Below are positions 17,390 through 31,418 of a DNA stretch of 64,000 bases, piece by piece (within the stretch, counting starts at the first letter, position 1; each line of letters begins with the position of its first letter). The notes beneath the pieces are model-generated. The model was given only the letters and a program-made list of their open reading frames with translations. It was not told where the DNA came from and did not search any database. The DNA comes from [Eubacterium] siraeum. Lineage in GTDB: Bacteria > Bacillota > Clostridia > Oscillospirales > Ruminococcaceae. The DNA is taken from positions 1,612,001 through 1,676,000 of the forward strand of contig CP102281.1 in assembly GCA_025150425.1 (NCBI GenBank). The letters run 5' to 3'. Both the position numbers and the translations under genes were made by a program.

Positions 17390-17445
17390 ACCTTATCTCA
17401 AAAGTGTCGTACCGCTTAAATAAAGGATTTGCGGTCAAGCATTTC

Positions 17446-17558
17446 TGATTCTTTCATCCGGACTATACCGTCGGTTTCGGAATTTCACCGAATCGGCACA
17501 AATACTTTGCGCTCGTGGACTTTACCACCGGTGGAGAATTTCACTCCGCCCTGAAACA
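17446..17558 (-). promoter_or_regulatory. FMN riboswitch aptamer (RFN element)
   Basis: On the minus strand the conserved RFN blocks appear in order: AGGGCGGAGTGAAATTC, CCACCGGTGGT, GTCCACGAGC, GATTCGGTGAAATTCCGAA, CCGACGGTATAGTCCGGATG and AAAGA. It sits ~140 bp upstream of ribU with a terminator between. This is a classic feedback switch turning off riboflavin uptake when FMN is abundant. Confidence 0.97.
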
Positions 17559-17603
17559 GATTACATCTATATTATATGCCTGTTTCTGTGTTTTGTCAAG
17601 GGG

Positions 17604-28683: not shown

Positions 28684-29949
28684 TCAATTTTCGTTGCCTG
28701 TAAGTACATAGACGCTGTCAAGTACCATAGATTTTGCGGCGGCGATTATGCGTTCCTTTGATACGCCGAGGTAACGTCCGAGCTTTTCTTCGGGAGTTAC
28801 TATATCGTTCTTTCTGATGCAGTCAAAGTACCAGTTGCTGACATTTCCTGCACTGTCGGCTACGCTCTTGAAATCGTTCTTTATAGCCATTTCCGCAAAG
28901 TTTATATCCTCGTTTGTGAAATTGCCGTTCTTGATTTCTTCAAGCTGGTCGATAACGGCTTCCTTAGTCTTTTCGATATTTTCGTTTTCGACACCGCTGT
29001 TTACAAGCATAATGCCTTTGAGGTCGTTTCTTGCAGCCGAGCAATAGTAGCACAGCGACATTTTTTCTCTGACGTTGCGGAACAGCTTTGATGATGTTGT
29101 ACCGCCGAAAATCTTCTGTAAAAGTACAAGTGCGGCATCGTCATCTGAATGCGACTTGAAGCCGAGAACGAGTTTGCTCTGATTTACCGTCAGCCTTTCG
29201 GTAACCTCTTCCGTCTGAGTTTTTACAGGGCTTAAAGCTATCATTGTGTTCTCAATATCGTGTCTGCCGGCTTTTTCAAATGCGGCGGCGAACTTTTCCG
29301 CTACTCCTTCAAAGTCGCTGCAGCCTGTGCAGATAATTTCGCACGGCATTGTTTCAAGCATACGGCGATATGCTTTATATGCGCTGTCGGGAGTTATCAG
29401 CTTTGCCTTTTCTACCGTGCCGTATGAGCATACGCTTGCAGGCTCGCCCTTACAGATGGTTTTCATCGCACGTTCTATTGCGTAGGAACGCTTATCGTTG
29501 ATAGCCGTTTCGATGTTATCTATGACGGTTTTCTTTTCAAGCTCAACGAATTTTTCTGAGAATACACCGTTTTCCGTTACGGGCGATGTAAGGCAATCTA
29601 TAAGGATATCCGTCATTATCCCGGTCATTTTTTCTCCAGAAAGAGCGTAAATGTCATCAAGATAATAAGCACCGAACGAAATTGTCTGCAGATCGTACTG
29701 TCTGCCTGCCGTTCCGCCTATGCCTGACGCATACAGCCTTGACATTTTATTGTTGAACGCTTTATATGTCGGAAGCTTTGAATTGCACTTTGTCAGCAAA
29801 ACGGGGACGATTACGTTTTCTGTAGCTGTATCCTCGCTGAGCTGAGTAGAGAATGCCACCGATATAAGATTCTTCTTATAGCGTTTATCGGTAATACTGC
29901 TGAAGTATACACCGTCGGCTATTTTCCTGCGGTTTATTATATTTTTCAT
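28684..29949 (-). CDS. yfmF: M16-family peptidase-like protein, YfmF type (no zinc site)
   Basis: The 421-residue M16 fold opens with RKIADGVYFSSITDKRYKKNLISVAFSTQL and contains NKMSRLYASGIGG. It lacks H-x-x-E-H, which marks it as the non-catalytic half of an M16 heterodimer. The C-terminal half keeps the M16 pattern (KIFGGTTSSKLFRNVREKMSLCYYCSA). It is 17 bp upstream of yfmH and is the first gene of the operon. Confidence 0.9.
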   Translation of the reverse strand: MKNIINRRKIADGVYFSSITDKRYKKNLISVAFSTQLSEDTATENVIVPVLLTKCNSKLPTYKAFNNKMSRLYASGIGGTAGRQYDLQTISFGAYYLDDIYALSGEKMTGIMTDILIDCLTSPVTENGVFSEKFVELEKKTVIDNIETAINDKRSYAIERAMKTICKGEPASVCSYGTVEKAKLITPDSAYKAYRRMLETMPCEIICTGCSDFEGVAEKFAAAFEKAGRHDIENTMIALSPVKTQTEEVTERLTVNQSKLVLGFKSHSDDDAALVLLQKIFGGTTSSKLFRNVREKMSLCYYCSAARNDLKGIMLVNSGVENENIEKTKEAVIDQLEEIKNGNFTNEDINFAEMAIKNDFKSVADSAGNVSNWYFDCIRKNDIVTPEEKLGRYLGVSKERIIAAAKSMVLDSVYVLTGNEN

Positions 29950-30037: not shown

Positions 30038-30223
30038 CGGCGGGTCGCCGCTGACTGTTCCGCCTGCGATAACGATACTTCTTTGCTACGGTTTGCAAAA
30101 CGGCGGGATTTGACGTTAGTAGAAATTCACGTATTTTCATAAAGCCGATGCGGCGCTCCAAATTCCGCCTACGATAACAATACTTCTATGCTGCGGTTAG
30201 CGAAACGGCGGAATTGGACGTTA
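30038..30223. repeat. Two 61-bp imperfect direct repeats plus a GC palindrome
   Basis: Unit 1 (30058-30118) and unit 2 (30163-30223) share 53 of 61 bases. Each starts TTCCGCC and ends GACGTTA, with a GGCGG arm, so each can fold. A palindrome GGCG-ggt-CGCC (about 30039-30049) lies just before unit 1 and shares its core with 4592-4603. It is part of a 720-bp gap without a protein gene (29950-30677). Confidence 0.7.
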
Positions 30224-30304: not shown

Positions 30305-30428
30305 CAAAAAAATTGAGCGTGACAAACTCACGCTCTCAAATCAAATAATGTATAATGTGTAGAACAAAAGAAAGGAGACAACTAAAAAACTAAAACCTCG
30401 TAAGCACTTAATCATGTGTCTTACGATG
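30305..30428 (-). ncRNA. Putative trans-acting small RNA with an anti-Shine-Dalgarno CU-rich stretch
   Basis: The minus strand has a complete small transcription unit of ~124 nt. A consensus sigma-A promoter lies at 30434-30462. The predicted 5' end near 30428 begins a hairpin (TCGTAAG...CTTACGA, 30398-30426). Next is an unpaired region with GUUGUCUCCUUUCUUUUGUU (complement of 30362-30382), which can pair with AAAGGAG ribosome sites. A strong terminator follows: GAGCGTGA-gtttg-TCACGCTC plus TTTTTTT (30306-30335). No open frame of note is present. The layout matches Firmicute sRNAs that block translation through C/U-rich loops. Targets are unknown. Confidence 0.6.
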
Positions 30429-30433
30429 GCTTT

Positions 30434-30462
30434 ATTATATCGCAAATTTACCAATTTGTCAA
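30434..30462 (-). promoter_or_regulatory. Consensus sigma-A promoter of the putative sRNA
   Basis: There is a minus-strand -35 TTGACA (30457-30462), a 17-bp spacer and a -10 TATAAT (30434-30439). Both boxes are perfect consensus, although no protein gene follows. Confidence 0.85.
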
Positions 30463-30677: not shown

Positions 30678-31418
30678 TCATTTTGAAACGCACATTTCTT
30701 TGAACAGCACTTTTATTTTTTCAAGTTTTTCCGGATCCATAGATTTCGGGGAAACATACGTCCTCAGAAATTCGAGAAGCTCTTTTTCGCTGGAGCAGAC
30801 ATTGTCGGTGTCGCTGAGATCGAGATAAAGATGAACGGTCGGAGCGGAAAAATAAAGCACCGTATCGACCCACTGATCAAGGTCGTTTGCACGGAGTATG
30901 GCTTTAATGATGTCACGCTGACGGCGCATCTGACGAATCGGACTTGTCATAACGGTTTCGGTGGTTTTACCGTCACGGTAGATTTTTCTCTGCGTCCACG
31001 TTTCGTCCTTATGATTACCGTAAATATAACCGGAATGGTTTTTTACTTCTATTATAATAATGTACCTGTCGCACATTACAAGTAAATCTATCTCGCTTCT
31101 GTTTTTCTTGTACCGCACAGGTACGTTTGCAAATACGGTATACTCGCTTCCGAGCTTCTTCACGGTTTTCATAAGCGATTTTTCGCCCTTAAAACCGGAA
31201 AGCAGTACGTTATAGCGTTTTGTTATAGTGAAATTCAGTGCCGCCGCTATAGCCATTATAACTATGAACGTATAGCCCAGTACAACATTTGAATACAGTG
31301 AAAAGCCTATATAGATCACCAGTAGTACGACCGGCAGCACGCCGAGTATTATCTGAAGAATAAACAAAACCGTAATTTTTTTGAAATTGTCGTAGCCGTG
31401 CTTATATATATCGGGCAA
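30678..31418 (-). CDS. Membrane-anchored NERD (nuclease-related) domain protein
   Basis: The 246-residue protein has two N-terminal helices (~14-38 and 43-62) and then a NERD domain at ~72-200. GFKGEKSLMKTVKKL is followed by SEIDLLVMCDRYIIIIEVKNHSG, which carries the E-D-ExK residues of the PD-(D/E)XK fold. The family is suspected to act on nucleic acids, but its function is unproven. It is a single-gene unit with its own promoter (AAGGAGG before the ATG) and terminator. Confidence 0.85.
   Translation of the reverse strand: MPDIYKHGYDNFKKITVLFILQIILGVLPVVLLVIYIGFSLYSNVVLGYTFIVIMAIAAALNFTITKRYNVLLSGFKGEKSLMKTVKKLGSEYTVFANVPVRYKKNRSEIDLLVMCDRYIIIIEVKNHSGYIYGNHKDETWTQRKIYRDGKTTETVMTSPIRQMRRQRDIIKAILRANDLDQWVDTVLYFSAPTVHLYLDLSDTDNVCSSEKELLEFLRTYVSPKSMDPEKLEKIKVLFKEMCVSK

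What the first reader, a model, noticed from the sequence alone, without database searches (positions are those of the whole stretch)
30305..30462. Probable stand-alone small RNA with an anti-Shine-Dalgarno loop
A perfect-consensus sigma-A promoter (TTGACA-17-TATAAT) on the minus strand drives no protein gene. About 124 nt later comes a strong intrinsic terminator with seven Ts. The predicted 5' end starts a hairpin, and the middle contains UCUCCUUUC in a CU-rich unpaired stretch complementary to the GAAAGGAG ribosome sites used by many genes in this window. This is the architecture of Firmicute trans-acting sRNAs that block ribosome binding. The family is not one I can name.
Basis: partly seen in the sequence, partly recalled or inferred. 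Interest (0 to 1): 0.8.

Follow-up and report, generated by a model that had tools for sequence, protein, structure and literature searches.

The report
Conserved gut-bacterial small RNA, phage-copied
A small RNA gene hidden between two protein genes carries an almost unchanging stretch of about 30 letters found widely in one large family of gut bacteria, and viral sequences carry the core of the same stretch, often next to a transfer-RNA gene, which suggests that both use it to control protein production.

Summary
It belongs to an sRNA family without an Rfam entry. 158 distinct matches share a nearly invariant ~30-nt linker, while hairpins and neighbouring genes change; promoters score >=11/12 in 152 of 158 (shuffled 0), terminators occur in 157 (shuffled 25). 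In 394 genomes of the order it was found only in this family.
Leaders with extended complementarity exist (HPr-like gene, clpB, dnaK; 30-nt sites in one species), modestly above controls; no target is proven.
Unexpectedly, 30 viral contigs carry the core between unrelated hairpins; in 22 a tRNA gene (18 tRNA-Met with an unpaired 1:72 position) starts 43-74 nt downstream (host copies 0 of 157). Best reading: a trans-acting sRNA acting at translation initiation, built like streptococcal csRNAs, whose guide phages also carry. Expression and function are untested.

The parts
30434..30462 (-). sigma-A promoter TTGACA-17-TATAAT
   Evidence: 12 of 12; family-wide >=11/12 in 152 of 158, shuffled flanks 0 of 158
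30306..30430 (-). predicted sRNA transcript (start about 30430-30427, end in the T run)
   Evidence: distance from the -10 hexamer and position of the terminator; no transcript data
30395..30430 (-). 5' hairpin at the predicted RNA start (sequence differs between lineages)
   Evidence: fold; covariation shown in another sub-group, 49 distinct arm pairs
30355..30384 (-). conserved unpaired core TAGTTGTCTCCTTTCTTTTGTTCTACACAT; the 22-mer GTCTCCTTTCTTTTGTTCTACA is at 30379..30358
   Evidence: unpaired
30370..30378 (-). anti-SD element UCUCCUUUC; CUCCUUUCU is shared with the 16S rRNA 3' tail of this genome
30306..30335 (-). intrinsic terminator: stem-loop 30335..30315, then T7 at 30312..30306
   Evidence: terminator-like in 157 of 158 matches, shuffled 25 of 158
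30678..31418 (-). upstream neighbour: NERD-domain protein
   Evidence: Pfam PF08378, E 2.5e-24; homologue nearby in 27 of 162 loci
28684..29949 (-). downstream neighbour: M16-type peptidase-like protein, start about 350 nt beyond the terminator
   Evidence: Pfam PF05193, E 2.7e-21; homologue nearby in 29 of 162 loci

Best explanation
An independently promoted and terminated ~120-nt trans-acting small RNA. Its 5' hairpin and terminator hairpin act as end caps and hold a ~30-nt single-stranded guide (UUUNGUUGUCUCCUUUCUUUUGUUCUACACA) in the open. The guide base-pairs with mRNA leaders of the type (GU)GUAGAACAAAAGAAAGGAGACAAC, often over the Shine-Dalgarno sequence and sometimes upstream of it, and so lowers translation initiation and/or destabilises the mRNA. 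Shown by sequence: the gene unit and its conservation, the openness and near-invariance of the guide, its occurrence in different neighbourhoods, leaders with extended complementarity, and the presence of the guide in viral contigs in the same hairpin-guide-hairpin layout. Inferred: transcription, pairing in the cell, the sign of regulation and the targets (HPr-like gene, clpB and dnaK are the leading candidates).
For: Conservation: BLASTN hits in 70 of 99 genomes at E<=0.1, all below 1e-4 in the same genus; 44 exact copies in 43 of 60 genus genomes, none at 1-2 mismatches, reversed control 0; 158 distinct matches nearly invariant over ~30 nt, including positions not used for the search (-7..-1, +22, +23). 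Gene unit: promoter 152/158 against 0/158 shuffled, terminator 157/158 against 25/158. 5' hairpin kept by covariation in one sub-group: 7.69 of 9 pairs against 6.88 (sd 0.12, max 7.20 of 500) permuted. Core unpaired 0.81 on average in 149 copies, 0.51 for the rest. Different neighbours in 162 loci. Anti-SD theme: CUCCUUUCU shared with the 16S tail; a second CCUCC in the 5' domain in 11 of 152 copies, shuffled mean 0.25; bulk pairing with 834 initiation regions better than all 12 shuffled guides. Targets: 103 non-sRNA sites with <=3 mismatches to the complement in 71 genomes against 66 for one pattern keeping the SD with shuffled flanks (p=0.0055) and 60 reversed (p=0.0009); HPr-like leaders fetched by protein, not by site, reach <=4 mismatches of 20 in 5 of 23 against 4 of 834 background leaders; in genome G578 three tandem 5'-UTR sites (-48, -48, -53 kcal/mol) and one further leader (-43) pair with most of the guide. 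Viral copies.
Against: No transcript data. In the window's own genome no site does better than 17 of 20 for the 20-mer searched, and non-self hits against reversed controls were 5 to 11, 6 to 3 and 4 to 6. Over 834 leaders the guide's flanks do not improve predicted pairing beyond guides with the anti-SD kept and flanks shuffled (132 below -18 kcal/mol against mean 105, max 153 of 20). Hits lie at gene starts in 49 of 83 true and 30 of 60 control sites, 59% and 50%. Recurrence of genes among hits is partly shared ancestry, and control hits also recur (two groups of two). Only one flank-shuffled pattern was used. A 30-nt near-invariant guide is stricter than target pairing usually demands.
Confidence: 0.7

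Rival explanations
1. The conserved linker is a protein-binding site: the RNA sequesters or scaffolds an RNA-binding protein (ribosomal protein, Nus factor, cold-shock protein or nuclease), and pairing with mRNAs is incidental.
For: Near-invariance over ~30 nt including the UUUUGUUCUAC half that is not anti-SD; in viral contigs each masked 4-5 nt block of the core showed 0 or 1 candidate variant, as expected of a site that cannot co-vary.
Against: The core contains 9 nt of the 16S tail; leaders with extended complementarity exceed controls; the leader of this genome's rRNA operon shows no resemblance to the core by eye.
Confidence: 0.2
2. A global anti-SD or 16S-tail mimic that tunes bulk translation initiation or ribosome availability rather than a defined set of mRNAs.
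For: CUCCUUUCU shared with the 16S tail; extra CCUCC in 11 of 152 5' domains; bulk pairing with 834 initiation regions better than all 12 shuffled guides (132 below -18 kcal/mol against mean 83, max 103); viral copies beside tRNA-Met genes.
Against: Only 3.1% of the 834 initiation regions hold GAAAGGAG and 10.2% AAAGGAG; guides with shuffled flanks pair as well, yet the non-SD half is equally conserved.
Confidence: 0.15
3. A cis-acting element (leader or attenuator) of a neighbouring gene.
For: In the window it is codirectional with the downstream M16 gene.
Against: About 350 nt and a strong terminator lie between; neighbours differ across 162 loci.
Confidence: 0.03
4. A short translated ORF.
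For: An ATG at 30415-30413 opens a 24-codon frame in the window copy (my reading).
Against: The ATG is absent in the close relative L003; all codon positions of the core are equally conserved and the 5' part changes length freely.
Confidence: 0.02

Closest known systems
csRNAs of Streptococcus (CiaRH regulon; PMC3091779, PMC4507080, passages read)
   Same: Small stand-alone RNAs with a 5' stem-loop, a terminator stem-loop and between them a conserved unpaired stretch complementary to the SD; they act at initiation regions.
   Different: Different sequence and lineage; near-invariant stretch of ~30 nt rather than a nonamer plus anti-SD; usually one copy per genome here; no anti-AUG 5' of the anti-SD in the window copy; viral versions beside tRNA genes.
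RsaE / RoxS (Staphylococcus, Bacillus; PMC4409812, passages read)
   Same: Conserved Firmicute trans-acting sRNA with C-rich regions that can pair with SD sequences.
   Different: Several C-rich regions there; no Rfam match here; different lineage.
Phage-encoded ncRNAs such as the two of phiKZ (PMC8545117, passages and section 12 read)
   Same: Short structured phage transcripts of unknown role.
   Different: Those are UTR-derived; the present viral copies hold a host sRNA core, and 22 of 30 precede a tRNA gene.

Membership tests
csRNA (Streptococcus CiaRH) | two stem-loops flanking an unpaired anti-SD segment | tested here: met
csRNA (Streptococcus CiaRH) | anti-start-codon CAU in the unpaired segment (53 of 61 csRNAs per PMC3091779) | tested here: not met
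   in the window copy the CAUs of the linker lie 3' of the anti-SD, the wrong order for one SD-AUG pairing (my reading)
csRNA (Streptococcus CiaRH) | CiaR-controlled promoter | tested here: not met
   no TTTAAG direct repeat seen upstream by eye; the motif is recalled, not from a call
csRNA (Streptococcus CiaRH) | conserved nonamer after the first stem-loop | not tested
   the nonamer's letters were not read
RsaE/RoxS | match to a curated RNA family | tested here: not met
   window: only an FMN riboswitch at gathering score; at E<=10 nine weak unrelated hits around the gene; 16 relatives: two riboswitches
RsaE/RoxS | ResD/SrrA-controlled expression | not testable with these tools
   no expression data
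Trans-acting base-pairing sRNA (general kind) | own promoter and terminator, no conserved ORF, conserved across changing neighbourhoods | tested here: met
Trans-acting base-pairing sRNA (general kind) | conserved complementarity to specific mRNAs | tested here: inconclusive
Trans-acting base-pairing sRNA (general kind) | expressed RNA that changes target levels | not testable with these tools
   no RNA data

The most novel reading that the evidence does not exclude
Phages of Ruminococcaceae have taken the guide of a host sRNA and make it as a hairpin-guide-hairpin RNA joined to, and probably cut from, a phage initiator-like tRNA: a translation-takeover cassette that throws the host's own sRNA switch on host mRNAs while supplying a phage tRNA for initiation. 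The guide is frozen because host and phage copies must address the same large set of leaders.
Probability: 0.3. Interest if true: 0.9.

Novelty: new variant of a known kind. Interest (0 to 1): 0.75.

Why it matters
Ruminococcaceae are dominant gut and rumen bacteria (recalled), yet none of the paper listings that I obtained names a trans-acting sRNA in them (open-licence PubMed Central papers only, titles and abstract starts seen). A ~30-nt single-stranded segment that hardly changes across genera is unusual for a pairing sRNA and makes a clear question testable: why can it not change? Its presence in viral contigs beside initiator-like tRNA genes would be a host regulatory RNA copied by viruses, and is a natural experiment on which part of the RNA matters.

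Tried and rejected
Rfam: no family for this RNA; ten viral loci gave only tRNAs. Pairing with rRNA: best duplex with the 8-kb rRNA stretch no better than for shuffled cores (32 of 60 as good). Own-genome long targets: none beyond 17/20. Bulk pairing outside the SD: no excess over flank-shuffled guides. Consensus fold of all lineages: no shared pair, the 5' hairpins are not alignable; sub-group covariation used instead. Other families of the order: model R1 gave 12 strong matches, all in the same family, and four weak ones (E 0.0023-0.0095) outside it in 245 genomes; the one read (L321) looks like the antisense of a gene start, the other three were not read. Named phages and plasmids: no match to the whole gene; the core alone gave only chance-level rows among those listed (E 1 or more; 20 of 232 records shown). 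Translation of the core and a cis role: see rivals. One MAG labelled Alistipes also holds the 22-mer (L102), probably a binning error; not followed up.

Counts to read with care: the 158 matches were gathered with <=1 mismatch in the 22-mer, so invariance inside it is partly by selection, and one of them (L204) is a target-like array, not an sRNA gene; one search is the less biased test. The shuffles keep single-base composition only. The 153 copies were picked for a promoter >=11/12 and a terminator. One search examined 83 sites (156 hits, of which I count 53 as sRNA copies, 103 as not); two of the 83, L387 and L408, are sRNA copies that I did not drop; about 20 non-sRNA sites were not fetched. 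60 of 66 control hits were fetched. HPr-like test: 30 leaders fetched, 6 dropped because their site had led me to the gene, 1 dropped because the contig ends; three of the five best of the remaining 23 (G038, G052, G007) share one ancestral leader by eye, so p values overstate independence. In one search the variants were sorted by eye; L598 has a tRNA-Tyr call near a changed core but not the hairpin layout. Masked scans miss copies with changes outside the masked block. The viral contigs are predictions; I searched proteins of five of the 30 (18 proteins) and found terminase and portal genes in three.

Full report
OBSERVATION. The minus strand at 30462..30434 carries TTGACA-17-TATAAT, the only 12/12 promoter-like site in the 1.6 kb scanned. 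The predicted RNA begins about 30430-30427, folds a hairpin at 30430..30395, runs unpaired through TTTTTTAGTTGTCTCCTTTCTTTTGTTCTACACATTATACATTATTTGATT and ends at a terminator with seven T (30335..30306). The fold is more stable than shuffles (z -3.2; 1 of 200 as good). No ORF of 60 aa or more lies on the minus strand between the NERD-domain gene (30678-31418) and the M16-type gene (28684-29949).

CONSERVATION. BLASTN of the gene against 99 genomes hit 70 at E<=0.1; all hits below 1e-4 are in the same genus and most centre on 30388..30345. A pattern for the complement of the core with four SD positions masked was exact in 44 places in 43 of 60 genus genomes, with no match at 1 or 2 mismatches, two non-sRNA sites at 3 (a DegV-like gene start in G048, a dnaK leader in G015) and no reversed-control hit (genes). 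In the order, 22 of 394 genomes matched a 30-mer at <=3 mismatches: 22 of the 42 of the same family and none of the 352 others. In the family, 51 of 197 genomes have a match without mismatch to the 22-mer pattern by my count of the list. In 158 distinct matches the 22-mer was the search key (<=1 mismatch), but TTT(T/A)GTT before it and CA after it are also nearly invariant, and conservation falls off quickly beyond. Diverged copies keep TCTCCTTTCTTTTGTTC (L291, L304, L387) or, in L293, the same with two more T, and vary after it.

GENE UNIT. The best upstream promoter scored >=11 of 12 in 152 of 158 matches and in none of 158 shuffled flanks; a terminator-like hairpin with T run was found in 157 of 158 against 25 of 158. 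The three with the lowest promoter scores are the second copy in G027, L077 and the target-like array L204. Predicted RNA length is 123 nt at the median of 153 copies chosen for promoter and terminator. A consensus fold over 36 lineages finds no pair, but in the sub-group with CGTTTTG before the core (105 copies, 49 distinct arm pairs) own arms pair at 7.69 of 9 positions against 6.88 (sd 0.12, maximum 7.20 of 500) when arms are permuted, and the two outer pairs switch between G-C, A-U and G-U. The 21-nt core is unpaired with mean probability 0.81 in 149 copies (lowest 0.40), the rest 0.51. Neighbours change: homologues of a pyruvate:ferredoxin-oxidoreductase-like gene (37), M16 (29), NERD (27) and a methionyl-tRNA-synthetase-like gene (17) among 162 loci, the first and last named from the sequence. 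G027 and G039 carry a second adjacent copy, the one in G039 degenerate. No Rfam family matched.

ANTI-SD CHARACTER. The 16S 3' tail of this genome is GGATCACCTCCTTTCTAAGG and shares CTCCTTTCT with the core. In 11 of 152 copies the 5' domain also holds CCTCC (shuffled mean 0.25, maximum 3 of 200; 6 of 47 in a thinned set). Among 834 initiation regions from loci of sRNA-bearing genomes 3.1% contain GAAAGGAG. Predicted pairing with them is better than for all 12 shuffled guides (132 below -18 kcal/mol against mean 83, max 103), but not better than for guides with the anti-SD kept and flanks shuffled (mean 105, max 153 of 20): the bulk signal is the anti-SD alone. rRNA is not a target by duplex energy.

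TARGET CANDIDATES. In 71 genus genomes AGAACAAAAGAAAGGAGACA at <=3 mismatches hit 156 places, 103 of them not sRNA copies by my count; one pattern with the same SD and shuffled flanks hit 66 and the reversed pattern 60 (p = 0.0055 and 0.0009). Of 83 true sites fetched 49 sit at gene starts, of 60 control sites 30. Grouping the genes downstream: HPr-like 6 (plus 1 control), clpB 5, MATE-like 3, dnaK 2, RelA/SpoT-like HD protein 2, ddl 2, BioY-like 2 (weak in Pfam), a mannose-isomerase-like protein 2 (named from the sequence); control hits gave two groups of 2 (Pfam of examples). The dnaK sites lie 77-101 nt and several HPr sites 21-42 nt before the start codon, upstream of the SD. For the HPr-like gene, leaders fetched by protein search had <=4 mismatches of 20 in 5 of 23 against 4 of 834 background leaders and more complementarity than their own shuffles (combined p about 7e-5, 7 of 23 below 0.05; related species, so overstated). 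This protein matches Pfam PTS-HPr only from profile position 19. In genome G578 one 5' UTR holds three sites pairing with most of the guide (-48, -48, -53 kcal/mol) and another leader one (-43); by eye most differences from a perfect complement keep G-U pairs. In the window's own genome the best leader is a short upstream frame before a metY-like gene with 17 of 20; hits there do not exceed reversed controls overall.

VIRAL COPIES. 23 viral contigs hold the exact 22-mer, and 7 more hold GTCTCCTTTCTTTTGTTC in a like setting, with changes just after it. By eye the flanks are unrelated to the host gene, but the layout is mostly the same: a strong 5' hairpin, the core, a second hairpin. Promoter-like sites are seen in part: TTGAAT-17-TATAAT in L359, and a -10-like hexamer of >=5/6 just before the folded hairpin in 10 of 17 examined; in others none was evident. 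L363 and L364 instead have a promoter-like site right before the core and a terminator-like hairpin. In 22 of 30 a tRNA gene starts 43-74 nt after the core (15 of the 22 contigs left after removing near-duplicates); of 157 host copies none has one, and of 600 random places in the same contigs 4. Eighteen are tRNA-Met(CAU) with an unpaired 1:72 position (G.A or C.A), an initiator hallmark (recalled); L361 and L371 have tRNA-Leu(CAA), L567 and L581 tRNA-Ser(UGA). Contigs L373, L369 and L377 carry terminase and portal genes, and in L373 and L369 the cassette lies between a phage transcription regulator and the terminase (18 proteins of five contigs searched). Masking four or five letters of the core at a time gave one candidate variant in the CTCC block (L603), none in the TTTC and TTTT blocks, and one in the GTTCT block (L582), sorted by eye. 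So GTCTCCTTTCTTTTGTTC is frozen in viral copies too, beyond the anti-SD part, while the UACACA end is looser.

INTERPRETATION. Sequence evidence makes the gene unit nearly certain. Pairing with leaders, mostly at the SD, is the best-supported mechanism, with candidate targets that exceed controls only modestly. The frozen non-SD half and its retention in viral copies are not fully explained by it; a protein contact is the main rival. In build it is like the streptococcal csRNAs (PMC3091779, PMC4507080, passages read) but fails their anti-AUG and promoter features, so it is filed as a new family of the same general kind.

LITERATURE. Ten searches listed no paper with this sequence or an sRNA named for this family; only open-licence PMC papers are held and for most I saw the listing only. 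Read in part: PMC3091779, PMC4507080, PMC4409812 (passages), PMC8545117 (passages and section 12).

Noticed in passing
L382 (window genome 2680200-2681400) and L418 (G031): A promoter-led leader with a conserved 22-codon upstream frame ending MCRCIA (MNIIAKAIRHNFRNGRMCRCIA in the window genome) before an O-acetylhomoserine-sulfhydrylase-like gene: looks like cysteine-sensing leader-peptide control.
   Followed up: partly
window 30220..30050: Two imperfect copies of a ~55-nt intergenic element (CCGCCGTTT..GC.AACCG.AGCA.AGAAGTAT.GTTATCG.AGGCGGAA) with inverted ends, between the sRNA and the M16 gene (by eye).
   Followed up: no
window 17442-17562, minus strand: FMN riboswitch (Rfam RF00050, 119 bits).
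   Followed up: no
L204:1480-1730: 5' UTR with three tandem ~80-nt repeats, each holding a near-complete complement of the sRNA core, before a gene whose first 200 residues have no Pfam match: multi-site target or RNA sponge.
   Followed up: partly
L007 (G039) second copy; L408 (G618): Degenerate sRNA copies interrupted by a GC-rich GGCGTCGGGGACGCC-type repeat.
   Followed up: no
L365, L376, L588 (and L357): Viral copies of the core followed by tRNA-like 3' ends (GTTCA.GTC...CACCA; L357 ends differently) that ARAGORN does not call; possibly reduced tRNA-like structures.
   Followed up: no
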